Below, piece after piece: positions 3,805 through 57,865 of a stretch of DNA of 64,000 nucleotides. The first letter of the stretch is position 1. Each line of letters begins with the position of its first letter. The DNA comes from Crossiella cryophila (GTDB taxonomy: Bacteria > Actinomycetota > Actinomycetes > Mycobacteriales > Pseudonocardiaceae). The translations under genes were made by a program, and so were the position numbers. The stretch spans positions 8,891,501 through 8,955,500 of the forward strand of contig NZ_JACHMH010000001.1 in NCBI RefSeq assembly GCF_014204915.1. The letters run 5' to 3'. The notes under the pieces were generated by a model. That model ran no database searches. It was not told the origin of the DNA and was given only the letters and a program-made list of their open reading frames with translations.

Positions 3805-3811
3805 CCGGCCG

Positions 3812-29501: not shown

Positions 29502-29561
29502 ACAACGGCCAACACGGCGTACGACAACGGCCAACACTGCGTACAAGAACGGCCAACACGC
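29502..29561. repeat. 22-bp tandem repeat, three units (GTGTTGGCC family)
   Basis: Three direct copies, at about 29503, 29525 and 29548, of the unit CAACGGCCAACACnGCGTAC, the reverse complement of the core found at 47951 and 57685. The array begins 11 nt after the stop of the small gene at 29156-29491 and runs into a G-quadruplex-type tract, all within the 96-bp convergent gap with the GH78 gene. Confidence 0.85.
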
Positions 29562-29587
29562 GGGTTGGGGTTGGGTTGGGGTTGGGG
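29562..29587 (+). other. G-quadruplex-forming TTGGGG-like tract
   Basis: Five G-tracts of 3-4 bases separated only by TT (29562-29564, 29567-29570, 29573-29575, 29578-29581, 29584-29587) end directly at the GH78 stop codon. The two-base loops fit a very stable G4 in the plus strand and in the RNA of the upstream small gene; the GH78 transcript carries the C-rich complement. It may end or stabilise transcripts. Confidence 0.8.
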
Positions 29588-32500
29588 TCAGGTTTTGGTG
29601 GTGAAGGTCCAGGTGCCGGAGCCGACTTCGTATTCCGCGTGGCGTGGGGTGGCGCGGAGGCGGGTGGCGCCGGGTGGGGCGGTGGTCTCGCCGAGGGGCA
29701 GGTGGATCTCGGCGGTGGCGCCGACCGGGACGGTGGCGGTGAGGGTCAGGCCGGTGGGGGTTTTGGCCCAGCTGACGCCGGCCTGGCCGCGGACGGTGCT
29801 GATGCCGGTGCGGGCCCAGTCCACGCCGGTGCGGGCGTCGGGGCGGATCAGGAAACGCTCATAGCCGTTGGAGAGGGGGCGCAGGCCGCCGACGTTCTCG
29901 TACAGCCACTGGGTGACGGTGCCCTGGAAGTAGTGGTTGCGGGAGCGGGAGTCCTTGTGCCACATCTCCCACATGGTGTCCGCGCCCTGGTCGATCCAGT
30001 AGCCCCAGCTCGGTTCGGTGCGCTGTACGGCGATGGCGTGTGCGAGGTCGGCGTGGCCGTGTGCGGTGAGCACCGGCAGCAGCACGCTGGTGCCCAGGCA
30101 GCCGGTGTTGAGGTGGTTGCCGCGCCTGCGGATGTCGGCGGCCAGACTGTCCACAACGGACTGCACTGATTCCGGTGGCACCAGGCCGAAGGCGAGCGGG
30201 ATGGCGTTGCTGGTCTGCCGGTAGCCCTGGTCGCGGTCGCTGTTGTAGTGGCCGCCGCGCAGGAAGGTGCGGTTGAGGGTGTCCCTGGCCGCGTCGGCGA
30301 CCGATCGGTAGCGGGCCGCGATGTCCTTGTGCCCCAGCATCTCCCCCAGTTCGGCCACGCCGATCAGGGCGCGGTGCAGGTAGGCGGTGGCGGTGAGGCG
30401 GTTGTCCTCGGGGGCCACGCCCCAGGGCGCGTCCGGGGGCAGGAAGTCGCCGAGGGCGGTCAGCGCGAGGCCGTCGCGCATCCGGTTGATCTCCCAGTCC
30501 AGGTAGCCGGTGAGCGCGGGCCAGTGCTCGGCGGCCAGCCGGTCATCGCCGTACCAGCGGTGCATTTCCCTGGCCAGGAACGGGAACACGGTGGTCCACT
30601 CGGGGGTGGGGGCGAGTTGCCGGTAGCCCCAGCGGCCGCCGTTGGGCACGATCACCGGGACCTGACCGGCGGCGTCCTGGGCATCGGCCAGATCGCCCAC
30701 CCACTTGGCGAAGAATCGTTGCATGCCAAAGGCGTAGGCCATGCTGGGCGCGCCTACCTGGGCGTCGCCGGTCCAGCCGTTCTTCTCGTACTTGGGGGTG
30801 TCGGTGGGCAGTGCGTGCAGGTTGTTCACGATGGTGCGCCGCATCATCCGGTCCAGTTGCTCGAACATCGGTTCACTGCACCGGAATTCGCTGACCTCGG
30901 GCACATCGCTGTGCACCAGCCTGCCGAGCACCTGCTCCGGTCGCGGGCCGGTGATCTCGACGTAGCGGAAGCCCTTGTAGGAGAAGCGGGGTTCCCAGGT
31001 CTCCGCGCCGGTGCCGGCGGTGATGTACTCGTCGCGTTGCTGGCGCAGGTCCTTGACGTGTTCGTTGACCGACTGCACGCTGCCGTCCGGGTTGAGTTTC
31101 TCCCCGTGCAGCAGGGAGATCCGGGTTCCGGCGGGGGCGCGGACGGTGATCTGGGTCCAGCCCGCCATGGTGCGGCCCATGTCGGCCACGTGCACGCCGG
31201 GCCGCAACTCGGTGATGCTGGCCGGGCGGATGGTCTCGGTGATCCGGATGGGTTCGTTGGGCTGGGCGCGCAGGGCGCCGGTGGGGGCGGGCAGGGTGCG
31301 GGCGGCGGTCCACGGGCCGGGGGTGTGCCGGGCGTCGTGGGTTTCGCCGGAGTACAGGGAGTTGACCCTGGTGTGGCTGTCGGTGATCCGCCAGGTCCCG
31401 TCGGTGCCGATGGTGGTGCGGGCGCCGCCGGGGTGCTCGATCTCCAGCTGGGCCAGCAGTCTGGGTTCGCCGTGCCACTTGGCCAGGTGCCAGTCCCACA
31501 CGTTGATCGTGGTGAGGCCGTAGAACCCGCGGCCCAGGGTGACGTCGAGCTGGTTGTCGCCCTGGCGGAGTTGCCCGGTGATGTCGTGCACGGCGTAGAG
31601 CACGGTCTTGTCGTAGCCGGTGAAACCCGGGTCCAGGACCTGGTCGCCGATCCGGCCGCCGTTGAGCTGGGCCTCGTAGTAGGCCAGGCCGCTGATGTAG
31701 AGGCGGGCCCGCAGTACCGGGCGGTCGAGGCGGAAGTCCTTGCGCAGCAACGGTGCCGGTTGCTGGGTGGCGGGCACGGTGACGTTGCGGCCCCAGGGGC
31801 CCTCGCCGTAGCGGGCCAGCACGGTGGCGACCGGCCAGGCACTGTCGTCGTAGCCGGGGCTGGTCCAGCCGGGGTGCGCGGTGTCGGTGGCCCGCCAGCC
31901 GGGGCCGGTGAGCAGTTCGACGGTGCGGCCGTCGGCGAGTTCGACGATCAGGCGCAGCAGCAGACCGGCCGGGCCACCGCGGTTGGCGGCCTCGGCGGCC
32001 AGGGTCAGCGCGGATCCGGCCGTGCGGGCCACCTCGGTGACGTCGACCAGGTGCGCGGCCGCCCAGGAGTTACCGGAGGCCATGGCGGACAACACTTCCC
32101 GGCCGTGCAGGTGCACGGTGAGGTTGTCGTCGGCGGTGGCCACCAGGGTGGCCTTGCGGACCTCGTCGGGCAGGTCGAGGGTGGCGCGGAACCAGCGGGA
32201 ACCCAGGGGCGCGGTGCTCAGCGTCCAGCCGGGGCCGCCGATCCAGGACGCCGGGTCGGCCCCCGGCGGCGGAGGTGGCGCGGTCGCGCCGATCCAGTCC
32301 GCGGCCCACGGCCTGCCGAGCTGTCCGGTCTCCCACCAGGCCGGGGTGCTCCAGGCCGAGGGCCGGTTGTCGCCGTCCCAGACCCGGACCCGCCAGTGGT
32401 AGCGGGTGCGGGGTTTGAGCGCGGGGCCGTCGTAGTGGATGCCGAGGGTGCGGGATGAGCGCACGGGTCCGCTGTCCCAGTGCGGGCGGCGGTCCTCGAA

Positions 32501-32767
32501 CCGGCCGGGGTCGGTGACCACCTGGACCTGGTAGGCGGTCTGGGTGGCGCCGTTGCGGTCGGCCCGCAAGATCCAGGCCAGCCTGGGCTTGTCGACGTCG
32601 GTGCCCAGGGGGTTGGTCGCGTACTCCACGGTGAGCCGGTCGACGGTCAGCGCGCTCACGGCCGTGTCCTCCCCCGCCTCGGCGATCTCGCCACTCGACA
32701 GTGCCACCGCCGCCGCGCCCGCGCCAGCGCCGCGCAGGAAGTTCCGCCGGTTCACCCGCCTGGCCAT
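29588..32767 (-). CDS. Secreted GH78 alpha-L-rhamnosidase
   Basis: 1059 residues. A Tat signal with twin arginines (ARRVNRRNFLRGAGAGAAAV) exports the folded enzyme. The multi-domain layout of GH78 follows: an N-terminal fibronectin-like domain (about 45-160), a carbohydrate-binding-like domain (about 175-330), bacterial alpha-L-rhamnosidase N-domain (LRKDFRLDRPVLRARLYISG), the (alpha/alpha)6 barrel (TPKYEKNGWTGDAQVGAPSM, about 680-700, with acidic catalytic residues) and a C-terminal beta-sandwich. It hydrolyses terminal alpha-L-rhamnose from plant glycosides or polysaccharides, feeding the rha operon 3 kb away. ATG 32767 has GGGAGG upstream; a GTCCACAGTGGAC palindrome lies 29 bp ahead of the start. 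Confidence 0.94.
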   Translation of the reverse strand: MARRVNRRNFLRGAGAGAAAVALSSGEIAEAGEDTAVSALTVDRLTVEYATNPLGTDVDKPRLAWILRADRNGATQTAYQVQVVTDPGRFEDRRPHWDSGPVRSSRTLGIHYDGPALKPRTRYHWRVRVWDGDNRPSAWSTPAWWETGQLGRPWAADWIGATAPPPPPGADPASWIGGPGWTLSTAPLGSRWFRATLDLPDEVRKATLVATADDNLTVHLHGREVLSAMASGNSWAAAHLVDVTEVARTAGSALTLAAEAANRGGPAGLLLRLIVELADGRTVELLTGPGWRATDTAHPGWTSPGYDDSAWPVATVLARYGEGPWGRNVTVPATQQPAPLLRKDFRLDRPVLRARLYISGLAYYEAQLNGGRIGDQVLDPGFTGYDKTVLYAVHDITGQLRQGDNQLDVTLGRGFYGLTTINVWDWHLAKWHGEPRLLAQLEIEHPGGARTTIGTDGTWRITDSHTRVNSLYSGETHDARHTPGPWTAARTLPAPTGALRAQPNEPIRITETIRPASITELRPGVHVADMGRTMAGWTQITVRAPAGTRISLLHGEKLNPDGSVQSVNEHVKDLRQQRDEYITAGTGAETWEPRFSYKGFRYVEITGPRPEQVLGRLVHSDVPEVSEFRCSEPMFEQLDRMMRRTIVNNLHALPTDTPKYEKNGWTGDAQVGAPSMAYAFGMQRFFAKWVGDLADAQDAAGQVPVIVPNGGRWGYRQLAPTPEWTTVFPFLAREMHRWYGDDRLAAEHWPALTGYLDWEINRMRDGLALTALGDFLPPDAPWGVAPEDNRLTATAYLHRALIGVAELGEMLGHKDIAARYRSVADAARDTLNRTFLRGGHYNSDRDQGYRQTSNAIPLAFGLVPPESVQSVVDSLAADIRRRGNHLNTGCLGTSVLLPVLTAHGHADLAHAIAVQRTEPSWGYWIDQGADTMWEMWHKDSRSRNHYFQGTVTQWLYENVGGLRPLSNGYERFLIRPDARTGVDWARTGISTVRGQAGVSWAKTPTGLTLTATVPVGATAEIHLPLGETTAPPGATRLRATPRHAEYEVGSGTWTFTTKT

Positions 32768-32925
32768 GCCCGCCTCCCGTGACCCCGACCGCTTTGTCCA
32801 CAGTGGACAATGCTGGGCCGGTGCCGCCCGGACACGGACGATAGGGAGGCCGGTGCGCGGCAACAATCACGCTGACCGGTGTTGGTCAGCCGCGAACGGG
32901 TGAGCTTGGCTGGCAGACTGGGCTG

Positions 32926-33759
32926 ATGCCGCAGTCCGAGGCCGTCCGTATCGCCGCTCGTTACCTGGCCACCGCCGATCGCCTGCTCCCCGGCAAGATC
33001 GTCGGCTGCTACCTGATCGGCTCGGCCGCGCTGGGCGCCTGGCGGGCCGGGCGCAGCGATGTCGACTTCATCGCGGTGCTCGACGGCGACCGCGGTGAAC
33101 GCGAGTTACGCCGGTTGCGGATGCTGCACATCGCGGGCAACCTGCGCACCGCCGGGCGGGCGCTGCTTCGGGCCGACCCGAGTATCCCCGGCACCATGAA
33201 CGGCGCTTTTGCGGCGGCCGAGGACATGAACAAGCCGGTCACCCGGATCCGGCCGTTGGCCGCGCACAGCGGGCGAACTTTCAAGCGGGGCGCGGGTTTC
33301 GACGTGAACCCGGTGATGTGGAAGGTGCTCCTGGAGGGCGGGATCCCGGTGCGCGGGGACTCCCCGGACCGGCTCGGGCTGGACCCGGAACCCGGGCGGC
33401 TGCGGGACTGGAACCTGGACCAGTTGCGCGGTCACTGGCAGGACTGGGCGCGCCGGTGCGTGACCGATCCGCCAAGGGACAAGCCGCTGATCCCGGCGCA
33501 CCGGCAGGCCCTGGCCAGGGTGCTCGGTCCGCCGCGGCTGCACCACACCATCGCCACCGGCGGGGTGATCGCCAAGGAAACCGCGGCCGAGTACGCCATG
33601 GACACCTTCGACGCGCGCTGGCACCCGATGTTGCGGGCCGCGCTGGCCCAGCGCACCGGCGAGCCGGGCCCCGAATTCCCGGAGCCCGGCCGATTACCGC
33701 GACTGGCCGGTGAGTTCACCCTGGAAGTGATCGCGGCCGCGGCACGGTTGGCGCAATGA
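32926..33759 (+). CDS. Nucleotidyltransferase-fold protein
   Basis: 277 residues with the Pol-beta-type NTase signature GSAALGAWRAGRSDVDF (32-48), including the GS and DxD catalytic elements. The helical C-terminal domain (HWQDWARRCVTDPPRDKPLI, ATGGVIAKETAAEYAMDTFD) resembles that of aminoglycoside adenylyltransferases (ANT(3'')/DUF4111). This could be an antibiotic-modifying enzyme or a housekeeping NTase; activity cannot be inferred. Two TTA leucine codons are present (33106 and 33694), unusual at this GC content. It abuts the stop of the convergent LPMO gene. Confidence 0.82.
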   Translation: MPQSEAVRIAARYLATADRLLPGKIVGCYLIGSAALGAWRAGRSDVDFIAVLDGDRGERELRRLRMLHIAGNLRTAGRALLRADPSIPGTMNGAFAAAEDMNKPVTRIRPLAAHSGRTFKRGAGFDVNPVMWKVLLEGGIPVRGDSPDRLGLDPEPGRLRDWNLDQLRGHWQDWARRCVTDPPRDKPLIPAHRQALARVLGPPRLHHTIATGGVIAKETAAEYAMDTFDARWHPMLRAALAQRTGEPGPEFPEPGRLPRLAGEFTLEVIAAAARLAQ

Positions 33760-34365
33760 TCAGAAATTGACGTCGATGCACTGGTAGAACGCGTTGCCGG
33801 TGTCCGCGATATCCCACACCGCGAGGATCAGGTGCCTGCCGGACTTGCCGCCGGGCACCGTGCCGCTGTGCGAGACCGCGTTCGGCGGCCGCGCGCCACC
33901 GTTGTTGACGGTGATGAACGGGCTGGGATCCAGCGCGGCCCTGGTGAGTTTCGCGGTGGAGTTCCAGCCGTTGCGGGTGATGAAGTACTTGAACGAGGTG
34001 GTGGCGTGCGGCGCGGTCAGCCACCAGCTGAACGTGCGGCTCGCGCCGCTGGTCAGCTTGGTGGTGGGCCAGCTCCCGCCGCGCGGGTCGTCGAGCTGGG
34101 CGAACTGGCCGAGTCCGCCGGAACAAATGCTGCCGTCGGCAGGCCCGCGGGCCGGGAATCCCTTGGGTCCCTCGACACTTTGCGGTTCCCACTGGATCGG
34201 CCCGCAGTTCTTCGCGGTGCCGAGTTTGCAGAACTGGGCCCTGCTGTTCGGGTTGTTGGTGTATCCGTGCGCGCCTGCCGTGGCAGGCACCACGACGGAC
34301 AACGCCATCAGTGCCAGGCTCATGATGCCGACCAGAATTGATCGCTTGATCGGAGTGGTACGCAA
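33760..34365 (-). CDS. AA10 lytic polysaccharide monooxygenase
   Basis: 201 residues: a Sec signal peptide (1-32, cleavage before HGYT) exposes His33 as the mature N-terminal histidine. With His120 in WLTAPHATTSFKYF it forms the copper histidine brace of AA10 enzymes, which oxidatively cleave crystalline chitin or cellulose. Cysteines in AQFCK, KNCGP, SICSG and YQCID support the usual disulfides, and the final FYQCIDVNF is the family C-terminus. Single-domain, with no carbohydrate-binding module. Together with the GH78, GH92 and GH95 genes it gives the window a polysaccharide-degrading character. Confidence 0.95.
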   Translation of the reverse strand: MRTTPIKRSILVGIMSLALMALSVVVPATAGAHGYTNNPNSRAQFCKLGTAKNCGPIQWEPQSVEGPKGFPARGPADGSICSGGLGQFAQLDDPRGGSWPTTKLTSGASRTFSWWLTAPHATTSFKYFITRNGWNSTAKLTRAALDPSPFITVNNGGARPPNAVSHSGTVPGGKSGRHLILAVWDIADTGNAFYQCIDVNF

Positions 34366-34473
34366 GGCAACCTCCGCGATGTTTCCGGCGGCGGGGGTTG
34401 CACCTCATGATGACAGCGCGGCCGGATAACGCGGCAGCGACCAACGGGGGAATCAGGCCATCAATCGCGCTAA

Positions 34474-34511
34474 GGGCCGGGCGTTGTCGGAAATCGGACA
34501 ACACCCGGCCC
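34474..34511 (-). terminator. Probable terminator of gnd
   Basis: Inverted repeat with 15-bp arms and one mismatch (GGGCCGGGCGTTGTC at 34474-34488 against 34497-34511), 8-nt loop, 13 nt past the gnd stop. There is no U-tract, as usual in GC-rich actinobacteria. Confidence 0.75.
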
Positions 34512-34523
34512 CTGGCACCGGAA

Positions 34524-35987
34524 TCACTCGGCCTGTTCGGCCTTGTCCGGGGTGGCCCACAGGGTGTGGAAGGAGCCCTCGGCGTCCACCCGGCGGTAGG
34601 TGTGCGCGCCGAAGTTGTCCCGCAGGCCCTGGATCAGCGCGGCGGGCAGGCGGTTGCGGCGCAGGCCGTCGTAGTAGGCCAGCGAGGAGGAGAAGGCCGG
34701 GGAGGGCACGCCCTCGCGGACCGCGTCCACGACCACCCGGCGCCAGCTGTCCACGCCACTGGCCACGGCCTCGGCGAAGTAGGGCGCGACCAGCAGGCTG
34801 GGCAGGTCGGGGTTGGCGTCGTAGGACTCGCGGATGCGGTCCAGGAACCGGGCCCGGATGATGCAGCCACCGCGCCAGATGGTGGCGGTGGAGCCCAGGT
34901 CGATGTCCCAGCCGTACTCCTGGCTGCCCGCGCGGATGTGGTCGAAGCCCTGGGCGTAGGCGACCACCTTGGAGGCGTAGAGCGCCTTGCGCACGTCCTC
35001 GATGAAGGCGTCCCGGTCGCTGTCCTTGACCCAGCCCGCCCCGGCCTCGCCGCCGAATGCCTCGGCCGCGGCCGCGCGCTGGTCGGCGTGCCCGGACAGG
35101 GAGCGGGCGAAGGTGGCCTCGGCGATGCCGGTGATCGGCACGCCCAGGTCGAGGGCGCTCTGCACGGTCCAGCGGCCGGTGCCCTTCTGCTCGGCCTGGT
35201 CCTGCACCACGTCCACGAACGGCTTGCCGGTGCGGTGGTCGGTGTGCGCGAGCACGTCCGCGGTGATCTCGATCAGGAAGGACTCGAGGTCGCCCTCGTT
35301 CCAGCCGCGGAAGATCTCCGCGATCTCCGCCGGGGTGGCGCCGAGGCCGGCCCGGAGCAGGTCGTATGCCTCGGCGATGAGCTGCATGTCGGCGTACTCG
35401 ATGCCGTTGTGCACCATCTTGACGAAGTGACCGGCGCCGTCCGGGCCCACGTGCACGCAGCAGGTCTGGCCGTCGACCTTGGCCGCGATGGACTCGAAGA
35501 CCGGCCCGAGCCGCGCGTAGGACTCCTTGGACCCGCCGGGCATGATGCTCGGCCCGAGCAGCGCGCCCTCCTCGCCGCCGGAGACGCCGGTGCCGACGAA
35601 GTGCAGGCCCTTCTCCTTGAGCGCGGCCTCCCGGCGGCGGGTGTCGGCGAAGTGCGCGTTGCCGCAGTCGACCACGATGTCGCCGGGTTCGAGCAGCTCG
35701 GCCAGCTCGTCGATGACCGCGTCGGTCGGGCCGCCCGCCTTGACCATGACGATGGCCACCCTCGGCCGCTCCAGGGCGTCCACGAACTCGGCCAGGGTCT
35801 CCGCCGGGACGAAGGTGCCCTCGTCGCCGTGCTCGGCGACCAGGCTCTTCATCCGCTCCACCGACCGGTTGTGCACGGCGACCGGGTATCCGTTGCGGGC
35901 GAGGTTGCGGGCCAGGTTCCGGCCCATCACCGCCAACCCGGTCACCCCGATGCGTGCCGTCGCGGTCCTGGAGGTCTCGCTGCTCAT
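34524..35987 (-). CDS. gnd: 6-phosphogluconate dehydrogenase, decarboxylating
   Basis: 487 residues, the full-length dimeric form; oxidises 6-phosphogluconate to ribulose-5-phosphate with NADP in the pentose phosphate pathway. The Rossmann motif is IGVTGLAVMGRNLARNLARN (about 13-32, GLAVMG with NRS at the end of beta-2 for NADP). The substrate loop VGTGVSGGEEGALLGPSIMP and the signature VKMVHNGIEYADMQLIAEAY (catalytic Lys and Asn) are intact. ATG 35987 is used, with GTG 35996 an alternative. Monocistronic, with its own terminator. Confidence 0.96.
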   Translation of the reverse strand: MSSETSRTATARIGVTGLAVMGRNLARNLARNGYPVAVHNRSVERMKSLVAEHGDEGTFVPAETLAEFVDALERPRVAIVMVKAGGPTDAVIDELAELLEPGDIVVDCGNAHFADTRRREAALKEKGLHFVGTGVSGGEEGALLGPSIMPGGSKESYARLGPVFESIAAKVDGQTCCVHVGPDGAGHFVKMVHNGIEYADMQLIAEAYDLLRAGLGATPAEIAEIFRGWNEGDLESFLIEITADVLAHTDHRTGKPFVDVVQDQAEQKGTGRWTVQSALDLGVPITGIAEATFARSLSGHADQRAAAAEAFGGEAGAGWVKDSDRDAFIEDVRKALYASKVVAYAQGFDHIRAGSQEYGWDIDLGSTATIWRGGCIIRARFLDRIRESYDANPDLPSLLVAPYFAEAVASGVDSWRRVVVDAVREGVPSPAFSSSLAYYDGLRRNRLPAALIQGLRDNFGAHTYRRVDAEGSFHTLWATPDKAEQAE

Positions 35988-36083
35988 CCTGCCCACCGTT
36001 CCGTGTCTGTGGCTGGTGCTACCTAGCGCAACGCCAACCCTGCCACCCGTACTCCCTGTTCAACGTTCGGGATCCAGGATCGT

Positions 36084-37037: not shown

Positions 37038-37129
37038 ACCGGAAGTCTGCGCGGGGGCCGGTGCCCGCGCCCACCGCCAACCGCCGGTGCTCCCCGCCAG
37101 CTGACCCGCCACCTGGCTACGCTGATCAC

Positions 37130-38143: not shown

Positions 38144-38147
38144 GCAC

Positions 38148-40172: not shown

Positions 40173-40182
40173 ACGACCGAAT

Positions 40183-43800
<3,618 letters not shown>

Positions 43801-43839
43801 ATCCCTCGGGGTCCGCGCCCCATGACGGTCGGGGACGGT

Positions 43840-43926
43840 GAGCGGAGTGTCTGGCTCCCGGGCTCGCACCCGGTGACAGTGGCGGGACCGCGCCGGACTC
43901 ACACCGGCTTCCTCCGTGGTTCACCG
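43840..43926 (-). promoter_or_regulatory. Cobalamin riboswitch upstream of cobN
   Basis: Read on the minus strand, the conserved core GAAGCCGGTGTGAGTCCGGC, then GCGGTCCCGCCACTGT, and finally the B12 box GGGAGCCAGACACT (about 43846-43860) appear in the canonical order and spacing. The 3' part before the cobN start is short and can pair to hide the ribosome site. Its 5' boundary is about 37 bp from the divergent cobG start, so both promoters share this gap. Confidence 0.92.
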
Positions 43927-43963
43927 TTCGAGGCGACCCTACCTGCCGCGTAGCATCCCGCGA

Positions 43964-47919: not shown

Positions 47920-47950
47920 ACCCCCACCTTAGATGCCTACGACCAGAACG

Positions 47951-48050
47951 GCGGAGTGTTGGCCGCTGTGGTACGGGGTGTTGGCCGTTGTGGATAGGCG
48001 AAGCCGTCGACAACGGCCAACACCCCGTACGACAACGGCCAACACTCCGC
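47951..48050. repeat. 41-bp inverted repeat built of 22-bp units (GTGTTGGCC family)
   Basis: Arms 47951-47991 and 48010-48050 are reverse complements at 39 of 41 positions, with an 18-nt spacer. Each arm consists of two copies of the unit GTGTTGGCCGTTGTCGTACG, so two direct units face two inverted ones. The right arm ends 4 nt from the GH95 stop codon. RNA from either strand would form a very long hairpin. Confidence 0.92.
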
Positions 48051-48054
48051 GGCG

Positions 48055-50439
48055 CTAGGTCGGTCGAACCGTCAAGGTCTCCCCAACCCGAAGAGACACC
48101 TGCCGCCGCCACCCCCCAGCCCGCAACTCCGTGCTCGTCCCCCCAACACTCCGCACCACCGCGCTCGTCACCTTCCCGTTGCGCCAGGCCAGATCCACCT
48201 CGAACCCGCCCTTGGCCCCGATCCCGGTGACCCGCCCCTGCTTCGCCCACGCCCCGGGCAGCGCCGGCAGGAACTCGATCACGCCCGGCCGGGAGTACAG
48301 CAGCATCTCCAGCATCGCGGTGGGTGCGCCGAAGTTGGCGTCGATCTGGAAGATGGCCCGATCCCCGTTGCGGTACATGTCGAAGAAGTTCGCCGAGGTC
48401 CCGTTCTCGTTCGCGATGCTCGGCCGCATCACCGTCAGCAACAGCTGATACGCCCGATCCGCATCCCGCAGCCGTGCCCAGCAAGCAGATCGCCAGGCAC
48501 ACGCCCACCCGAAGCTCTCCATCCCCCGGACCTCCAGAAGCTTCCGGATGCCCTCGATGGTGGCCTTCGGCGACACATCATGGTTCATATGATCACCAGG
48601 GAAGAACCCGATCAGCGGCGACAGATGCCGGTGCGTGCGCTCGCCGATGTCGTCCGGATGCATCCACTCCTGCAGCATCCCGGTCTTCGGACTGACCTCC
48701 GGCAGGTACAACCGCTCCTGCAGATCCTTGACCTGCGCGGCGAACTCCTTGTCCCGCCCCAGTTTCGCCGCCGCGAGCTGGAGTTCGCGGAACAGTTCCC
48801 AGACGATCTCCTGGGCGTAGCTGATGCCCAGCGCGTCCTGCGGCCCGTGCTCCGGCGACCAGTCCTTGTCATCGACCAGCACCTGCCGGGTGCTGCCGTC
48901 CGGGTAGGTGTGCGTGATGGTGATCAGCCGCGCGGCCCAGAACTCGGCCGCGCCCTTGAGCAGTGGGTAGATCCGCTCCAGGTACTTGGCGTCCAGGGTG
49001 AACTCGTAGTGCTCCCACAGCGACTGGCACAGCCAGGCGTTGCCGGCCGGATGCCACCACCAGCCGAGGCCGCCGTTGGTGTTGGTGGAGAAGGCCACCG
49101 TCCACCCGGCGATCTTCCCGGTGGAGTTCCGGAACCGGTTGCGCGGATCGTTGTACAGCCGCTGGGTCTGCCTCGACCACTCCGGCAGCTGGGCCAGGCA
49201 GTACTCGGCCAGCGCGGGGAAACAGCGGCCGAGACCGGCGCGGTCGGTCAGCCAGTAGTTCATCTGGATGTTGATGTCGGTGTGGTAGTCGGCGTACCAG
49301 TCCGGCGAGTTGTTGTGCAGCCACAACCCTTGCAGGTTGATCGGCAGGCTGTCCCTGGACCCGGTGATCATCAGGTACCGGCCGAACTGGAGGTAGCTGG
49401 CCTCCAGCTCCGGGTCCGGCTGCCCGGGATTGGTGTGCCGCACGGCCAGCCGCGACCAGGAGTCCAGATTCCGTTGCGAGCGGCTGGATTCACCGAGGTC
49501 GACGGTCATCTTCCGGTACAGCGACTGGTAGTCGGCGACGTGCGTGTTGAGCAACGCGGTCCCGGCCACCTTGGCCTTGGCCAGCGCCCGGTCCCGGGCC
49601 ACCGTCAGCGGTTCCACGGTGGTGTTCCGGAAGCCCTTGGCCGCGTCCGGCAGGTAGTCGGTGCCGCCGGAGACCACGATCAGCAGTTCCCGGCAGTCGG
49701 TGAAGGTCAGCTCGTTGCCGCTGACCGCGACCGTGCCGGTGTCGCTGAACGCGGTGACCACCGCGGCATAACGCAGTCCGTTGTCGAACCGGGCCTGCAG
49801 GGAGATCGTGCGCGTCCCCGCCTCGCCGGCGACGGTCTCCGTGCGGGTGGGCTCCAGCCGGATCCGTCCACTGTGGACACCACCACCGCGCTGGGTCAAC
49901 CGCACCACGACCACGTCGTCCGGATGACTCGCGTAGGTCTCCCGCCGGTACTGCGCGCCCTTGACCCGGTAGGAGGCGGTGACCAGCCCGTTGCTCAGGT
50001 CCAGCCGCCGCCGGTAGTCGCCGACCGCGGCCTTGGTGTGCCCGGTGACCTGCACCCGCACCTTGGCCAGCAACCCGAACGACCCGAAGTCGTTGGGCCC
50101 GTACGGGAACTGCCCGTCATCCTGCAGCACGTCGTTGCGATGCCCGGTCCACAGGGTGGCATCGGTCAGGTACAGCACATCGTCGGCCGGATCGGACCCG
50201 ACCAGCGCCCCCAGCCGGCCATTGCCGATCGGCAACCCCTGCTGGATGATCCGGCTCTCCTCGGCAGGCGCCGGGTACCACAGACTGGTCGCCTCGGACT
50301 CCGGCACCAGACTCACGCCCTGCGGCCGGGCCACCTCCTCTGCCTGTGCGATGAACGGCCGGACCCCGCTCAGCATCATCCCGGCGCCAACGGCGCCCGT
50401 GATGCGCAGGAAGTCCCGGCGCGACGGCGAGTCGGACAT
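48055..50439 (-). CDS. Secreted GH95 alpha-L-fucosidase-type glycosidase
   Basis: 794 residues. A Tat signal (SPSRRDFLRITGAVGAGMML) is followed by the GH95 N-terminal beta-domain opening WYPAPAEESRIIQQGLPIGN-G, and the (alpha/alpha)6 barrel with NLQGLWLHNNSPDWYADYHT (about 364-383, including an active-site Asn/Asp pair) and PLIGFFPGDHMNHDV. The family holds inverting alpha-1,2-L-fucosidases and alpha-L-galactosidases acting on plant or host glycans. ATG 50439 has AAGGGA upstream. Lies at one end of the block that interrupts the cob genes. Confidence 0.93.
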   Translation of the reverse strand: MSDSPSRRDFLRITGAVGAGMMLSGVRPFIAQAEEVARPQGVSLVPESEATSLWYPAPAEESRIIQQGLPIGNGRLGALVGSDPADDVLYLTDATLWTGHRNDVLQDDGQFPYGPNDFGSFGLLAKVRVQVTGHTKAAVGDYRRRLDLSNGLVTASYRVKGAQYRRETYASHPDDVVVVRLTQRGGGVHSGRIRLEPTRTETVAGEAGTRTISLQARFDNGLRYAAVVTAFSDTGTVAVSGNELTFTDCRELLIVVSGGTDYLPDAAKGFRNTTVEPLTVARDRALAKAKVAGTALLNTHVADYQSLYRKMTVDLGESSRSQRNLDSWSRLAVRHTNPGQPDPELEASYLQFGRYLMITGSRDSLPINLQGLWLHNNSPDWYADYHTDINIQMNYWLTDRAGLGRCFPALAEYCLAQLPEWSRQTQRLYNDPRNRFRNSTGKIAGWTVAFSTNTNGGLGWWWHPAGNAWLCQSLWEHYEFTLDAKYLERIYPLLKGAAEFWAARLITITHTYPDGSTRQVLVDDKDWSPEHGPQDALGISYAQEIVWELFRELQLAAAKLGRDKEFAAQVKDLQERLYLPEVSPKTGMLQEWMHPDDIGERTHRHLSPLIGFFPGDHMNHDVSPKATIEGIRKLLEVRGMESFGWACAWRSACWARLRDADRAYQLLLTVMRPSIANENGTSANFFDMYRNGDRAIFQIDANFGAPTAMLEMLLYSRPGVIEFLPALPGAWAKQGRVTGIGAKGGFEVDLAWRNGKVTSAVVRSVGGTSTELRAGGWRRQVSLRVGETLTVRPT

Positions 50440-50763
50440 GGTCGAGTCCCTTCGATGGGCTGTGGCGGAAGGTCCACCCGAGGCTCGATGTGGTGGTGCG
50501 GCGCAGGAAAGATACGATCTCTTAACAGAACCGTCAACGGTCCGTAGGCGTCAGCCAAACAGAGCAACGCCGAAAAAGGCCCATCTGCCAGCACTTCTGT
50601 GCCGTCAGGTCGCGCCGGAACAAATCGGAATAGATCACCCGCGAACCGGGACACCTCCGATGGGTCAAGATGACCGGTCGTATTCATCGCCAACCAGAAA
50701 ACCCCGGTGCACCCGCGCGATTCCTGCTGCGCGGGCACCCCGGGGCGGTTCACATCCTGCTGA
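50440..50763. other. 324-bp intergenic region
   Basis: No gene seen. It must hold the GH95 promoter near its left end (an AT-richer patch GATACGATCTCTTAACAG at about 50513-50530) and, at its right end, the hairpin at 50702-50745 that should end the transcript of the pseudoprotease gene. Confidence 0.5.
50702..50745 (-). terminator. Probable terminator of the 50764-52470 gene
   Basis: Inverted repeat: CCCCGG...CCCGCGC (50702-50718) against GCGCGGG...CCGGGG (50729-50745), 10-nt loop, with a short internal mismatch, 18 nt after the stop codon. Confidence 0.75.
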
Positions 50764-52470: not shown

Positions 52471-52567
52471 TGCGGAACCCCCCTATGAGTTCTCGGTGAG
52501 TGACGGGGCGAAGCCTAGGGCAGGCCTCTGACAGTTCGCTTAACGCCGAGTGTGAGGATGGCTGTTC

Positions 52568-53479
52568 GTGCCCCATCGTGTCCCGCTGATCCCACTGCTC
52601 GCCCTGGCCGTGGCCGTGCTCGCGGTGTCCACCTCCGGCCCGCTGATCGCCTTCGCCGCCGCGCCCGCGCTGGCGATCGCGTTCTGGCGCAACACGATCG
52701 CGGTCGGCCTGCTCACCCCGTTCGTCGCGGCACGCCGCGGCCCGGAGCTACGCGCCGCGGTGGCCGGGGACAAACGCGGCCCCGGCGGCTACAGCGTGCT
52801 GGCAGGCGCGATGCTGGCCCTGCACTTCGGCACCTGGATGTCCAGCGCCCAGCTCACCACGGTGGCCACCTCGATCGCGCTGGGCTGCACGCAACCGGTG
52901 TGGGCCGGGCTGATCGCGGTGTGCCAGGGCAAGCGCTTGCCGATGAGCACCTGGCTGGGCATCGGCCTGGCGGTGGCCGGCGCGGTGTGGACCACGGGCG
53001 CGGACTTCCAGGTCTCCGGCGCCGCGCTGTGGGGTGATGTGCTGGCGGTGCTGGGCGGCATGGCCGCCGCGGGTTACGTGGCACTGGGCGAGCACGCCCG
53101 CACCGCGCTGACCACCACCACCTACACCACGATCTGCTACGCCACCTGCGCGCTGGTGCTGCTGGTGGTGTGCCTGAGCGCGGGCATCCCGCTGACCGGC
53201 TACCCGGACACCACCTGGCTGGCCATCCTGGCCATCGCGCTGGGCGCGCAGCTGCTCGGGCACTCGATGTTCAACTACGCCCTGCACGCGGTCTCGGCCA
53301 CCACGATCAGCCTGGTCACGCTGCTGGAGGTGCCGGGGGCGGCACTGCTGGCCTGGGCCTGGCTGGGCCAGACCCCTCGGCCCGCGTCGCTGCCGGGGCT
53401 GGCGTTGCTGCTGGCCGGGGTCGCGGTGGTGGTGCTGGCCGGGGCCCGGCGGCCCGCGGTGGCGCCGGTGGCCGGATAG
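52568..53479 (+). CDS. DMT-superfamily (EamA) transporter
   Basis: 303 residues with ten hydrophobic segments in two EamA repeats (about 5-145 and 160-295); the second repeat has the family pattern AILAIALGAQLLGHSMFNYA, followed by TISLVTLLEVPGAALLAWAW. Inner-membrane exporter or importer of small metabolites; no substrate can be named. It lies between the two paralogous pseudoproteases but on the opposite strand. GTG 52568 is the start. Confidence 0.92.
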   Translation: MPHRVPLIPLLALAVAVLAVSTSGPLIAFAAAPALAIAFWRNTIAVGLLTPFVAARRGPELRAAVAGDKRGPGGYSVLAGAMLALHFGTWMSSAQLTTVATSIALGCTQPVWAGLIAVCQGKRLPMSTWLGIGLAVAGAVWTTGADFQVSGAALWGDVLAVLGGMAAAGYVALGEHARTALTTTTYTTICYATCALVLLVVCLSAGIPLTGYPDTTWLAILAIALGAQLLGHSMFNYALHAVSATTISLVTLLEVPGAALLAWAWLGQTPRPASLPGLALLLAGVAVVVLAGARRPAVAPVAG

Positions 53480-53483
53480 CCGA

Positions 53484-53516
53484 ACGGCCGGGGCGGCGCG
53501 ATGCCACCCCGGCCGT
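53484..53516. terminator. Bidirectional terminator
   Basis: Perfect 10-bp arms ACGGCCGGGG / CCCCGGCCGT with a 13-nt loop, between the convergent stops at 53479 and 53533. It can serve both genes. Confidence 0.8.
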
Positions 53517-53532
53517 CAGTTCAGCTGCTGTG

Positions 53533-55155
53533 TCAGGGCTTCAGCGGCGGGGCCACGGCCCAGCTGGTGTCGGCCTCGAAGGAGTTCGGCGTCTCGTACC
53601 ACTGCGAGCCGCCCTTGTAGGCGTTCCACACCTCGCCGTTGATGTGCCGGAGGTAGTTGTCCGGGAAGTTGAACGAGGCGAAGGAGACCCCGTTGCCAGC
53701 CGCGCTGTCCCTGGCGCACCAGGTGGCGTCGTTGGCGTACAGCGGGGATCCGTTGTTGTCGTCCAGGCGCAGCCTGCCGTTGGCGTGCCGCAGGTAGGCG
53801 CCGCGGATGTCGCGGGACTGCAGGGAGTAGCAGCGGCTGTCGGCCAGGCCGGGGACCAGGTCGAAGGTGGCGTCGGCCTTGTCCAGCGCGGGGCTGCTCG
53901 CGGTGATCAGGCTCAGCCAGCCCTCACCGCGGGCGTGCCGCAGGTAGTGGTCGGGCAGCCCGGCGTTGGTGGCCCGCAGCGAGGCGCGCTGCGGCAGGTC
54001 GTGCCGGACCTTGCCCTTGGCGGTGAGCTGCCACAGCTGGTAGTCGTAGGGGTGCATGCCGTCGCGCTGCACCACCCGCGCGCCCAGCTCCAGGTTGGGC
54101 ACGGCCAGACCGCCGAGGTTGCCCGACCGGCGCAGCTGCACGGTGCCGTTCTTGCCGGGCGTGATCAGCCAGTGCTGCTCGCCGCTGCCGCAGGTCATGT
54201 ACTCGACGCCGCTGCCGACCGGGACCAGGCACTTCTGCGTGTACAGGTTGCGCAGGCCGCGGTACTCGCCGGAGCCGACGACCTCGAACTCCTCCTCGGA
54301 CCGGCCGCCGCCGCAGACCGCGGTCACCGCGCCGCGCAGGCAGTAGCCGGTGATCTGGTTCTTCAGCTCGACGATGGTGCCGTCGGTCAGCGCCGGGTTG
54401 GCCCGGCCCGCCAGCACCTGCTGCTTGATCCAGTCGGTGAGGTCGTCCACCCGGACCGCGGTGGTCGCGTCGCTGGTCTCGGTCTCGCCGAGGCAGTTGC
54501 GCCGCGGCGCGGTGGCCAGGATGGCGCCCAGTTCCGGGTTGCCGTCGCGCTGGCGGATCACCGGGCCGCCGAGGTCGCCCCCGCAGATCTCCGCCCCGCC
54601 CGAGCCCAGGGTCAGCGTCGCACCCGCCTGGCCGCCCAGTGGGAAGGTGGCCGAGTGCAGCCGGTCCTCTTCCTCACTGGCCGCGGCGAGCGCGCCGTAG
54701 CCGGTGACGGTGAGCTGCTCACCGGTGGCGAAGCCGGAGGCCGTGGGCAGCCGGGCAGGCCAGGTGTCCGGCACCGGCTCGGTCAGCTTGACCAGCACCA
54801 GGTTGCGGTCGGCGTGCGGGACGAGCTGGCTCGCCTCGGACACCGCGCCGCCGCCGTGGGACAGCTTGGTGCGGCCGACGCTGACCACCGTCCGCTCGGC
54901 GGGCGCACCGGGCCTGACCTGGCCCGGCGTGCCGAAGCAGCTCGCCACGGTCAGCACCCACTGCTCGTCGACCAGCACACCCGAGCAGGCCTTCTCCGCA
55001 CCGACCCGCAGGTACGCGCTGTAGCTGTACCCACCGTTAGGCACCGGTGTGCCGCCGCTGATCGCGTGTGCGGGCAACGCGCCCAGCAGGCCGGTTACCA
55101 CCGAAGCGGCCAGCGCACCGGCCACCGCGGTCTTGCTCAACTTTGCACGCGCCAC
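53533..55155 (-). CDS. Second secreted trypsin-fold pseudoprotease with lectin modules
   Basis: 540 residues, a paralogue of the protein at 50764-52470 with the same order of parts: signal peptide (cleavage near LPAHA-ISGGT), S1-like domain, ricin-like trefoil, AbfB-like trefoil (SLRATNAGLPDHYLRHARGE). All three catalytic residues are changed: VLTVASC has Ser72 for His, RNLVLVKL has Asn118 for Asp, and GDLGGP has Leu195 for Ser. The replacements differ from those of the paralogue, so inactivation was either independent or ancient. GTG 55155 is decided by AAGGGGGA 6 nt upstream; a longer form from 55197 lacks such a site. Confidence 0.88.
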   Translation of the reverse strand: MARAKLSKTAVAGALAASVVTGLLGALPAHAISGGTPVPNGGYSYSAYLRVGAEKACSGVLVDEQWVLTVASCFGTPGQVRPGAPAERTVVSVGRTKLSHGGGAVSEASQLVPHADRNLVLVKLTEPVPDTWPARLPTASGFATGEQLTVTGYGALAAASEEEDRLHSATFPLGGQAGATLTLGSGGAEICGGDLGGPVIRQRDGNPELGAILATAPRRNCLGETETSDATTAVRVDDLTDWIKQQVLAGRANPALTDGTIVELKNQITGYCLRGAVTAVCGGGRSEEEFEVVGSGEYRGLRNLYTQKCLVPVGSGVEYMTCGSGEQHWLITPGKNGTVQLRRSGNLGGLAVPNLELGARVVQRDGMHPYDYQLWQLTAKGKVRHDLPQRASLRATNAGLPDHYLRHARGEGWLSLITASSPALDKADATFDLVPGLADSRCYSLQSRDIRGAYLRHANGRLRLDDNNGSPLYANDATWCARDSAAGNGVSFASFNFPDNYLRHINGEVWNAYKGGSQWYETPNSFEADTSWAVAPPLKP

Positions 55156-55207
55156 AGCGCAGATCCCCCTTGAGTCGACGAAGTCGTTACGTGCCAAGGG
55201 GACGCCG

Positions 55208-55223
55208 CTCCCCCGCAGGGGAG
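55208..55223 (-). terminator. Short hairpin, possible terminator of SulP-CA gene
   Basis: CTCCCC CGCA GGGGAG, a 6-bp stem with tetraloop, 25 nt past the stop at 55248. It is short, so the assignment is weak. Confidence 0.4.
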
Positions 55224-55247
55224 ACTATGCAGACCTTTCGGGGGCCG

Positions 55248-57404
55248 TCAATCCGCTGTTCGCCGTGTACCGGTGCCCACCGCCGGCACTGCTCCATCCG
55301 GGTCAAGTGGTCTGAACCGCTGGGTTTCGGGGTCCAAAATGGACAGTCTGGCCTGGCCGATGTCGAAGAACAGCCCGATCACCTGGAGCCTGCCCTCGGC
55401 GACCGCGGCGCGCACCATGGGCAGCCGGGCCAGCGCCTCGGCCTGCACCGCGACGTTGACCTTGGCCAGCCGGTCGGCCTCCTCCTGCTCGCCCGCGCCC
55501 GCCGGATGTCCGGCGCGGAAGGCCCGCAGGCTGGGCAGTCCGGCGCGCAGCCAGCGGCCCAGCGAGTCGTCCTGCTCGGCGCGGCCGGAGAGCAGGCTGG
55601 TCATGCCGGCGCAGGCGGAGTGGCCGCAGACCATCAGGGTGGGCACCCGCAGCACCTCGACCGCGACGTGCACGGAGGCCTCGATGCCGTCGTCGCCGGG
55701 GGGCACCAGGTTGCCGACGTTGCGCACGGTGAACAGGTCGCCGGGCCCGCTGGTGGTGATCATGTTGGGTACGATCCGGGAGTCCGCGCAGGTCAGGAAC
55801 AGTCCGTGCGGGCGTTGCAGCACCGCGAGCTGCTCGAAGAGCGGGCGCAGCAGCGGCGCGGAGTGCCGGTGGTACTCGCGCACGCCGGTCTCCAGCGGGG
55901 AACCCGAGCGCGGCCGGGGCAGTTCGCCCTGCCAGCTCGACCAGGGCGCGAACCAGCGCGGCAGCACGGGTTTGCCCTCGGCGCCGAGTTCGGCCACCAC
56001 CACGGTGCCGCCGCGTTCCTCGTGTTGCCGCCGCCAGCCGGAGAGGTGCTCGTAGGCGGCGTGGTCCAGGAACTCCGCGACCAGTTCGATGTCCACAGTG
56101 GACCGGTCAGGGATCTGCCCGAGCATCCGGGAAAGCCTTGGCAGGGAAAGGAAACTCAGCGTGCCCTCGACCAGCACCCGCCACCGGCCGGGCGCGGACT
56201 CGGTGACCCGGACCCTGGCCCAGACCACCCGGCGCAGCACCAGCACCACCGAGGTGGCCAGCCCGATCAGCACGCCCTGCAACAGGTCCAGGAACACCAC
56301 GCCGGACACGGTGGCCAGGTAGGCAAGGGCCTCCCGGTGCCGCCAGGCCGAGCGCACGTCCTCGATCCGGACCAGCTGCAGGCCGATGAACACCAGCAGC
56401 CCGGCCAGCGCGGCCATCGGCACCCGTTCGATCACCCCGGCCAGCAGCAGCACGAACAGCAGCACCCACACCCCGTGCAGGATGGCCGAGGCCCTGGTGC
56501 GGGCGCCGGCGGCCACGTTGGTCGAGCCGCGCACGATCACCCCGGTCACCGGCAGCCCGCCGAGCAGGCCGGAGGCGGTGTTGGCCACGCCCTGCCCGAA
56601 GAGTTCGCGGTCCAGGTTGCTGCGGGTGCCTGCCAGTTTGTCCACGGCCACCGCGGAGAGCAGGCTCTCCACGCTCGCGATGACGGTCAGGGTGAGCACC
56701 GCGAGCAGCACCGCGCCCCAGTCGCCGCCGGGGAGCTGGGGCAGACGCAGGGAGTCCAGCAGTGATCCGGGCAGGTCCACCCGGACCAGGTCGAGTCCGG
56801 CGACCTCGGCCAGCACGGTGGCCAGCAGCACCGCGACCAGCGGGCCGGGCACCCGGCGCACCGGCGCGGGCAGGAAACCCCACAGCAGCAGCACGCCCAG
56901 CACCAGCAACCCGATCAGCGCGGCGGGCCCGTGCAGGTCGAGGAGCTGACCGGGCAGTTCGAGCAGGTTGGTCAGCGCGCTGGTGCCGGGCTGGCCGCCG
57001 AGCAGCACGTGTAACTGACCGAGCACGATGACCAGGCCGATCCCGGCCAGCATGCCGTGCACCACCGCGGGGGAGATGGCCAGCGCGGCGCGGGCCACCC
57101 GGCACAGGCCGAGGATCAGTTGCAGCACCCCGGCGGCCACGGTGATGCCGCAGGTGACCGCCCAGCCGAACTGGTCGATGAACCCGGCCACCACCACGGT
57201 CAGCCCGGCCGCGGGCCCGCTGACCAGCAGCGGGGACCCGCCGAAGGCCGATGCCAGGATGCCGCCGACCACCGCGGCCACCAGCCCGGCCACGATCGGC
57301 GCGCCGGAGGCCACCGCGATGCCAAGGGACAGCGGCACGGCGACCAGGAAGACCACCATCGAGGCGGGCAGGTCGTACCGCAGGTCGTGTCGCAGCCAGT
57401 TCAT
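55248..57404 (-). CDS. SulP anion transporter fused to STAS and beta-carbonic anhydrase
   Basis: 718 residues. Residues about 5-390 are a SulP (SLC26) membrane domain with 10-14 segments (PASMVVFLVAVPLSLGIAVA; GLLGGLPVTGVIVRGSTNVA). A STAS domain follows (about 420-500, STVDIELVAEFLDHAAYEHL), then a beta-carbonic anhydrase (about 515-700). Its zinc ligands are intact: CADSR (about 536-540) and HSAC (about 592-595). Such fusions are thought to take up bicarbonate and hydrate or dehydrate it on the spot. ATG 57404 has AAAGGGGG upstream. It sits at the cobM end of the inserted block. Confidence 0.94.
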   Translation of the reverse strand: MNWLRHDLRYDLPASMVVFLVAVPLSLGIAVASGAPIVAGLVAAVVGGILASAFGGSPLLVSGPAAGLTVVVAGFIDQFGWAVTCGITVAAGVLQLILGLCRVARAALAISPAVVHGMLAGIGLVIVLGQLHVLLGGQPGTSALTNLLELPGQLLDLHGPAALIGLLVLGVLLLWGFLPAPVRRVPGPLVAVLLATVLAEVAGLDLVRVDLPGSLLDSLRLPQLPGGDWGAVLLAVLTLTVIASVESLLSAVAVDKLAGTRSNLDRELFGQGVANTASGLLGGLPVTGVIVRGSTNVAAGARTRASAILHGVWVLLFVLLLAGVIERVPMAALAGLLVFIGLQLVRIEDVRSAWRHREALAYLATVSGVVFLDLLQGVLIGLATSVVLVLRRVVWARVRVTESAPGRWRVLVEGTLSFLSLPRLSRMLGQIPDRSTVDIELVAEFLDHAAYEHLSGWRRQHEERGGTVVVAELGAEGKPVLPRWFAPWSSWQGELPRPRSGSPLETGVREYHRHSAPLLRPLFEQLAVLQRPHGLFLTCADSRIVPNMITTSGPGDLFTVRNVGNLVPPGDDGIEASVHVAVEVLRVPTLMVCGHSACAGMTSLLSGRAEQDDSLGRWLRAGLPSLRAFRAGHPAGAGEQEEADRLAKVNVAVQAEALARLPMVRAAVAEGRLQVIGLFFDIGQARLSILDPETQRFRPLDPDGAVPAVGTGTRRTAD

Positions 57405-57432
57405 CGGTTCCCCCTTTCCTACCAACACTATG

Positions 57433-57452
57433 GACCAATTGTCCGATTGGTC
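57433..57452. promoter_or_regulatory. Inverted repeat upstream of SulP-CA gene
   Basis: GACCAAT-TGTCCG-ATTGGTC, perfect 7-bp arms with a 6-bp spacer, 29-48 bp ahead of the start codon; a possible operator in the promoter. Confidence 0.5.
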
Positions 57453-57684
57453 GGGACAGCGCGGCGTCGGGGAACTACTTGGAGCGACAGGAATCGGACA
57501 CACTTCACCCGATCGAATGTCGGCCGTCGGGAACTCCGTTCAAGATCACCCAGCTCGTGGGCGTACGCGAGCCGGCTGGCACCGATCGCGCGCCGCGGCG
57601 AACCGCACACAGTTCACCCGCTTCAGTGACCCGCCACCGGGGGTCCAGACCCCCAGCCAGCAGCCCCGCCCACCCCTCACCAGC

Positions 57685-57865
57685 GTGTTGGCCGTTGTCG
57701 TACGCAGTGTTGGCCGTTGTCGTACACAGTCTTGGCCGAACTGGTACGCCCAATCGGCCAACACACCGCCCACAACGGCCAACACACCGTCCGGAACGGC
57801 CAACACCCTGTACGACAACGGCCAACACACCGTCCAGTTCGGCCAACACACCGTCCGGAACGGGC
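57685..57865. repeat. 22-bp tandem repeat array with orientation switch (GTGTTGGCC family)
   Basis: About eight units. The first three (57685, 57707, 57729) read GTGTTGGCCGTTGTCGTACG-like on the plus strand; the next five read as its reverse complement (CGGCCAACAC...). The array therefore folds back on itself at about 57750. It ends 8 nt from the cobM stop codon (57873). Units vary mainly in the segment after GGCC (GTTGTCGTACG, GAACTGGACGG, GTTCCGGACGG). Confidence 0.9.

What the first reader, a model, noticed from the sequence alone, without database searches (positions are those of the whole stretch)
29502..57865. A family of 22-bp repeat arrays placed immediately 3' of stop codons
The same unit occurs at 29502-29561 (three direct copies), 47951-48050 (two direct plus two inverted) and 57685-57865 (three direct plus five inverted). 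In each case the array begins within 4-11 nt of a stop codon (29491, 48055, 57873). The unit has a constant GGCCAACAC part and a variable middle. I know of no named element with these properties in actinomycetes. It may be a new intergenic repeat class that spreads as tandem blocks and switches strand.
Basis: partly seen in the sequence, partly recalled or inferred. Interest (0 to 1): 0.8.

Follow-up and report, generated by a model that had tools for sequence, protein, structure and literature searches.

The report
22-bp repeat arrays at gene ends
An actinomycete of the genus Crossiella carries over a thousand copies of a short DNA unit, set in 22-base-spaced arrays just after the stop codons of genes where a transcription terminator would normally sit, and one close relative has arrays at the same places with a different core sequence.

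Summary
The core CGGCCAACAC occurs 1,085 times in this 10.06-Mb genome (reversed-pattern control 61). Units repeat every 22 bp (sometimes 21), with a GTAC or GTCC linker, in direct and inverted blocks. In 1.46 Mb of the genome, 26 of 30 array clusters lie within 30 nt of a facing stop codon (random placement: mean 2.0, maximum 8); none of 222 divergent gene pairs has one. The genus is Crossiella. Siblings G002 and G003 share the core. Crossiella sp. S99.2 has arrays at 7 of 7 comparable sites, mostly with the core TTGGSCCAA. Sibling G004 has almost none, though it is 99.3% identical to array-bearing G002 over sdhB and part of sdhA. Arrays sit where terminator hairpins sit (median 12.5 versus 11 nt from the stop) and mostly replace them: a strong hairpin outside the array remains in 2 of 30 array regions versus 161 of 491 array-less ones. 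Best reading: a new REP-like family that takes over the terminator slot, probably through a protein reading the phased core plus large hairpins in inverted arrays. Protein, termination activity and spreading mechanism are inferred. REP elements elsewhere also sit just 3' of stops, so: new variant of a known kind.

The parts
29502..29561 (+). direct array, three + units, 22-bp period; fills most of the 96-nt space between two convergent stops (29491 + and 29588 -)
   Evidence: folds no better than shuffles (z 0.9)
47951..48050 (.). inverted array, two - units then two + units; 3' of the - gene that ends at 48055
   Evidence: folds as a large hairpin (z -13.1)
57685..57865 (.). inverted array, three - units then five + units; 3' of the - gene that ends at 57873
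   Evidence: z -8.1
29270..29491 (+). gene whose stop codon precedes array 1 (start uncertain)
   Evidence: own gene finder; ORF
29588..32767 (-). convergent gene whose 3' end faces array 1
48055..50439 (-). gene whose 3' end lies 9 nt from the last core of array 2
57873..58619 (-). gene whose 3' end lies 23 nt from the last core of array 3

Best explanation
These are a new REP-like family of extragenic arrays that has taken over the terminator slot at the 3' ends of genes in Crossiella. SHOWN: the unit is a near-invariant 10-bp core (CGGCCAACAC in this species) plus an 11-12-bp linker built round GTAC or GTCC; units repeat on a two-helical-turn period in direct and inverted blocks; clusters lie about 12 nt after stop codons and were not found between divergent genes; where an array is present the usual terminator hairpin is mostly absent; array sites are shared with a close relative whose arrays mostly carry another core. 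INFERRED: arrays end or insulate transcription arriving from either side. Inverted arrays could do so as very stable hairpins; direct-only arrays could not, so a host protein that reads the phased core in double-stranded DNA and acts as a roadblock is the simplest common denominator. Arrays spread by copying blocks between 3' ends and are renewed in place, which would let a new core sequence sweep through a genome. The copying enzyme is unknown.
For: Placement: 26 of 30 clusters within 30 nt of a facing stop; null mean 2.0, maximum 8 in 1,000 draws; 0 of 222 divergent regions (null mean 9.1). G002: 11 of 11 clusters within 30 nt; G001's TTGG-type clusters: 8 of 10; the one G003 cluster at 29 nt. 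Slot: strong hairpins in array-less regions start a median 11 nt from the stop, n=161; arrays 12.5 nt. Exclusion: strong hairpin outside the array in 2 of 30 versus 161 of 491, p=0.0018; convergent pairs of the three long blocks only, 2 of 9 versus 31 of 43, p=0.008. Swap: the space between sdhB and its convergent neighbour holds arrays in own, G001 and G002 and a plain hairpin in G003 and G004, while G002 and G004 are 99.3% identical over 1,414 bp of sdhB and part of sdhA. Shared sites: own array sites have arrays in G001 at 7 of 7 versus 2 of 146 other sites (p 1e-10); in G002 7 of 14 versus 1 of 321. Phase: spacing 22 bp in 68 and 21 in 15 of 83 pairs. Constraint: at two alignable own/G002 arrays the core differs at 1 of 60 positions and the linker at 6 of 76, against 0.209 at four-fold sites of a one-in-three sample of ownA orthologues. 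In 29 distinct hairpin centres of + then - arrays (own 21, G002 3, G001 5) the first base pairs with the last in 90% versus 56% when shuffled.
Against: No RNA, binding or termination data. Six of 30 clusters are direct-only and do not fold (median z -0.9), so hairpins alone cannot be the mechanism. Over six arm positions the covariation test is not significant (p 0.079); only position 1 (and weakly position 5) is, and a first version of the test that took the wrong arm gave no signal. G003 has arrays but at none of own's 7 comparable sites. In G002, 7 of 14 own array sites have none. Two array regions keep an ordinary terminator (own 1,942,264-1,942,862 and 1,997,748-1,998,708). The one cluster of own-type units in G001's fetched block lies 66 nt from a stop. 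G004 manages almost without arrays. The two alignable arrays were picked because they align; G001 arrays were called from single motif matches. Absence elsewhere could be plain selection against harm.
Confidence: 0.45

Rival explanations
1. Selfish or neutral REP-like repeats: they spread by an unknown route and survive only where they do no harm, that is between a stop codon and the next promoter. No function is needed.
For: REP elements elsewhere show the same placement (PMC3733652, passages: most conv-REPs under 20 bp from both 3' ends). Array blocks are shared between loci (L008/L011). Edge units are less exact than inner ones, 31 of 52 versus 86 of 93, as in decaying satellites. G004 has almost none.
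Against: Tolerance alone does not predict that ordinary terminators are missing beside arrays, or sites conserved across species with different cores. The edge comparison is biased, because weak inner units could be missed by the threshold.
Confidence: 0.3
2. The arrays act only as RNA: inverted blocks make giant hairpins that terminate transcription or protect mRNA 3' ends, with no binding protein.
For: Of the 24 arrays short enough to fold (of 30), 18 hold both orientations and have median z -10.5. Central hairpins such as GGAGGGGTTC-GGGTTT-GAACCCCCTCC recur with changed bases. G001 cores are themselves near-palindromes.
Against: Direct-only arrays occupy the same slot (window array 1; own 1,975,237-1,975,309) and at two sites own and G002 share a direct-only array, but such arrays do not fold. 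Helical phasing is not needed for an RNA hairpin.
Confidence: 0.15
3. The arrays are transposon ends: 22-bp binding sites of a transposase, as in Tn7, with short arrays as miniature elements and the ~700-bp noncoding X element as a larger non-autonomous one.
For: Where units flank X, the nearest left unit is always - (7 of 7) and the nearest right unit always + (6 of 6) among 10 copies examined; an eleventh side, the right of the L096 copy, runs into L097 and is also +. This is like inverted ends. X probe: 62+62 in own, 1+1 in G001, 0 in three siblings, suggesting a recent burst.
Against: No match to the Mu/Tn7-type C-terminal domain (PF09299) in own, G002, G003 or G004; one in G001. Other transposase families were not searched apart from PF01797. 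Target-site duplications were not searched for systematically; at sdhB the whole stop-to-stop space differs rather than being split by an insert. One X copy (L103) has no array on either side.
Confidence: 0.1

Closest known systems
REP elements and BIMEs (GTAG and CGTC super-families)
   Same: Many short extragenic copies, in both orientations, predominantly between convergent or unidirectional genes and close to 3' ends; CGTC families have no known transposase (PMC3733652, passages read).
   Different: The unit here is not an individual palindromic stem-loop; repeats are head-to-tail on a fixed 22-bp period with a constant core and variable linker. 'Actino' has 0 hits in that paper's main text.
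REPINs with RAYT transposases
   Same: Inverted pairs forming hairpins; block spread inside a genome (PMC3116915, passages read).
   Different: Array-bearing G002 and G003 have no Y1_Tnp match; own has one, with a stop inside.
Tn7 ends with 22-bp TnsB sites (recalled; the paper search was seen only as a listing)
   Same: 22-bp sites in direct arrays, inverted at the two ends; insertion just after a stop codon (recalled).
   Different: Many loci, no cargo genes seen, no Mu/Tn7-type domain match in four of five genomes.
Mammalian rDNA Sal-box terminators bound by TTF-I (recalled, no call)
   Same: Repeated protein sites just 3' of a gene that stop polymerase.
   Different: Analogy only; no binding protein is known here.

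Membership tests
REP / BIME | each unit is a short imperfect palindrome (stem-loop) | tested here: not met
   Own units are not palindromic; direct-only arrays fold like shuffles (median z -0.9, n=6). G001 cores TTGGSCCAA come close.
REP / BIME | extragenic, next to 3' ends, avoids divergent spaces | tested here: met
   26 of 30 clusters within 30 nt of a stop, 0 of 222 divergent regions, 2 of 184 units inside genes
REP / BIME | terminal GTAG or CGTC tag | tested here: inconclusive
   Linkers hold GTAC (58 of 83) or GTCC (23 of 83); a fixed terminal tag was not tested formally
REPIN / RAYT | associated Y1 transposase in the genome | tested here: not met
   PF01797: own 1 (one TGA inside), G001 3 matches, G002, G003, G004, G013, G044 none; G002 and G003 bear arrays
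Tn7-like transposon ends | Mu/Tn7-type transposase in array-bearing genomes | tested here: not met
   PF09299 matched in 1 of 5 genomes (G001)
Tn7-like transposon ends | target-site duplication | tested here: inconclusive
   only the sdhB site compared by eye; no shared target left to judge
Intrinsic terminator | G+C-rich hairpin followed by a U run | tested here: inconclusive
   Inverted arrays fold strongly; U runs were not scored
CRISPR array | unique spacers between identical direct repeats of about 23-50 bp (definition recalled) | tested here: not met
   Core 10 bp; 46 distinct linkers among 83, with re-used words; inverted units within arrays
Known Rfam RNA | match above gathering score | tested here: not met
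   Window: only Cobalamin; L138, L099, L049: none

The most novel reading that the evidence does not exclude
A genus-specific, protein-based way of ending transcription: a DNA-binding protein reads helically phased core arrays at roughly 130-210 gene-end clusters, replacing intrinsic terminators, and the core has been rewritten across much of one sister genome (CGGCCAACAC to TTGGSCCAA in Crossiella sp. S99.2) while the array sites stayed, so protein and sites have co-evolved.
Probability: 0.13. Interest if true: 0.9.

Novelty: new variant of a known kind. Interest (0 to 1): 0.62.

Why it matters
How actinobacteria stop transcription at G+C-rich gene ends is poorly settled (general knowledge, not from a call). 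Here nature gives a set of close relatives in which the same gene end carries a hairpin terminator, one array dialect, or another. That makes two questions directly testable: whether repeats can take over a terminator's job, and how a short motif can be rewritten at many loci within about 10% four-fold-site divergence (own versus G001).

Tried and rejected
REP/RAYT mobilisation: rejected as membership, since G002 and G003 bear arrays without a Y1_Tnp match. Tn7/Mu: kept only as a low-confidence rival. A wholly new dialect in G004: the one orthologous site read shows CGGCCGGC-type cores, but the generic GGCC-GTAC-GGCC pattern is at background there (6+1 versus control 5+2), so G004 is treated as array-poor; a dialect lacking GGCC or GTAC is not excluded. 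Linker complementarity as proof of RNA hairpins: the first test took the wrong arm, the second is not significant overall. Viral contigs for the sdhB protein: nothing. Bacteroidales hits in the named scan (L183, L184, L189): treated as chance tandem repeats on a rough mental estimate, not computed. Rfam for X-bearing loci: nothing. The number of clusters in the genome is rough: 10 in the 0.8-Mb grid scale to about 130, while 1,085 cores at 57 cores per 10-11 grid clusters give about 200. The other 0.60 Mb of own blocks includes stretches picked because they were array-rich.
Full report
Checking the finding. The core CGGCCAACAC is the constant part; each unit adds a linker of 11 or 12 bases. 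The window lies at G000:C1:8,891,501-8,955,500 of a 10,058,141-bp single-contig genome, which holds 550+535 exact cores against 28+33 for the pattern read backwards and 284+274 tandem pairs against 0.

Which organism. The genome's own record is not named. A same-genus genome, G001, has a contig of 994,210 bp, the length of NODE_2 of Crossiella sp. S99.2 in the named scan, so I take the genus to be Crossiella. In the 396-genome phylum sample the only genome matching the tandem pattern was our own. Among 150 genomes of the relatives set, own included, 8 matched: own, the four siblings G001 (49+38), G002 (115+116), G003 (54+38) and G004 (1+1), and G013 (5+1), G044 (1+1) and G117 (0+1).

Named hits elsewhere. 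The scan of named genomes returned 36 stretches: 18 of Crossiella sp. S99.2, 13 of Amycolatopsis acidicola, one each of A. alkalitolerans and A. deserti, and 3 of rumen or uncultured Bacteroidales (records of our own or very near genomes may be left out). The Amycolatopsis arrays have a 21-bp period (44 of 56 close pairs) and lie less tightly after stop codons: of 17 clusters in 15 loci, 8 have a facing stop within 35 nt (gene finder trained on the Crossiella genome).

Anatomy. From 71 exact cores in 0.86 Mb, the positions before the core favour A[CG]AA and the linker favours nCCGTACGA. Among 83 adjacent exact pairs in 1.46 Mb, spacing is 22 in 68 and 21 in 15; the linker holds GTAC in 58 and GTCC in 23. 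With a trained score of 16 bits or more there were 77 hits in 0.86 Mb and none in one Markov-random copy. Blocks run direct (+++), or + then -, or - then +; 6 of 30 clusters are direct-only. In + then - arrays the centre is itself mostly a hairpin.

Placement. I wrote a codon-bias gene finder and applied it to 1.464 Mb: a 40-point grid of 20-kb stretches, 0.60 Mb in longer blocks chosen partly for array richness, and the window. It gave 1,155 intergenic regions, 184 units (2 inside genes) and 30 clusters, a cluster being all units in one intergenic region. Twenty-six of 30 lie within 30 nt of a facing stop (median 12.5); random placement in the same intergenic space gives 2.0 on average, at most 8 in 1,000 draws. 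Clusters lie in 17 of 224 convergent, 13 of 709 co-directional and 0 of 222 divergent regions. The four exceptions are one at 60 nt that seems to interrupt a signal-peptide region (L070), one that lies about 215 nt 3' of a tRNA-Leu gene (L088), and two beside X elements.

Terminator slot. In array-less 3' regions, 161 of 491 hold a strong hairpin, starting a median 11 nt after the stop. In array regions, after masking units, 2 of 30 do (p=0.0018). In convergent pairs of the three long blocks: 31 of 43 versus 2 of 9. Downstream of sdhB, G003 and G004 have an ordinary hairpin terminator, while own, G001 and G002 have arrays. At two other sites a terminator is kept next to the array.

Relatives. 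Over comparable regions (adjacent reciprocal best matches), own array sites carry arrays in G001 at 7 of 7, other sites at 2 of 146. In G002 the figures are 7 of 14 and 1 of 321. In G003 they are 0 of 7 and 1 of 112. In G001's fetched 200 kb the exact core CGGCCAACAC is absent and TTGGGCCAA (9+12) takes its place, at 22-bp spacing; genome-wide G001 has 210 TTGGSCCAA pairs, own 1, and the other 88 of 90 genomes none. G001 also keeps CGGCCAACAC pairs elsewhere and has at least one array mixing both cores on the 22-bp period (L191). So the G001 change is a strong shift, not a complete replacement. Four-fold-site divergence from own is 0.099 (G001), 0.209 (G002) and 0.299 (G003) in a one-in-three sample of orthologues.

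The odd sibling. G002 and G004 are 99.3% identical over 1,414 bp of sdhB and part of sdhA, yet the generic pattern GGCC-N8-GTAC-N6-GGCC gives 116+126 in G002 and 6+1 in G004, where the control is 5+2. At another site, with outer flanks 97-98% identical to G002, G004 has a changed array with CGGCCGGC-type cores, and the gene between the two arrays matches G002's at only 72% over part of its length. Because own and G002 share idiosyncratic units at that site, loss in G004 is more likely than gain in G002; this rests on two gene regions for kinship and two sites for array history.

Movement. L008 and L011, about 10 kb apart, share three + units with both linkers and, with one mismatch, the centre; their - units are similar but not the same, and L008 has a further degenerate unit nearer its stop. 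Edge units are less often exact (31 of 52) than inner units (86 of 93), partly because weak inner units could be missed. A second noncoding repeat, X, about 700 bp, gives probe counts of 62+62 in own, 1+1 in G001 and none in the other three, and where arrays flank it they are inverted to each other.

Mechanism. What is shown is location, phase, partial exclusion of hairpins and shared sites with different cores. That arrays end transcription, that a protein reads them, and how they are copied are inferences. Literature: I read passages of PMC3733652, PMC1525189, PMC3116915 and PMC12306157 with its abstract and outline. They show that REP placement next to 3' ends is established. No paper naming this repeat appeared among the listed results of the ten searches, which cover open-licence papers only and list at most 15 papers each.

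The window's core count is 15 (14 exact), the Amycolatopsis counts are 44 of 56 and 8 of 17, the cluster estimate is 130-210, and the X copy at L096 does have array units, on its right.

Noticed in passing
own genome, e.g. L049:11970-12683, L138:740-1490: X, a ~700-bp noncoding element with long inverted repeats; probe counts 62+62 in own, 1+1 in G001, 0 in G002-G004; no Rfam match in three X-bearing loci. Looks like a recent species-specific expansion, often bordered by the 22-bp arrays.
   Followed up: partly
L070:8865-9028: An array sits between a start-like MKAKKTRTPK stretch and a signal-peptide-like stretch of a large downstream gene, as if it interrupts the gene's 5' part (read by eye). 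Described only.
   Followed up: no
window 43824-43957 (-): Cobalamin riboswitch, 45.7 bits.
   Followed up: no
window 2377-4071: Several other tandem repeats of 20-22-bp period with unrelated units, in a stretch with few called genes.
   Followed up: no
window 29562-29594: G-rich GGGTTGGGGTTGGGTTGGGG tract right after array 1, of the quadruplex type.
   Followed up: no
own genome 5.1-7.4 Mb: No exact core in the ten 20-kb grid stretches taken there, though array-like matches exist elsewhere in that region, so density is lower, not zero.
   Followed up: partly
G004:C31:15333-18215: The gene between two arrays in own and G002 is a much diverged version in G004 (72% over the matched part), with 97-98% identical outer flanks; arrays may mark exchange points.
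   Followed up: partly
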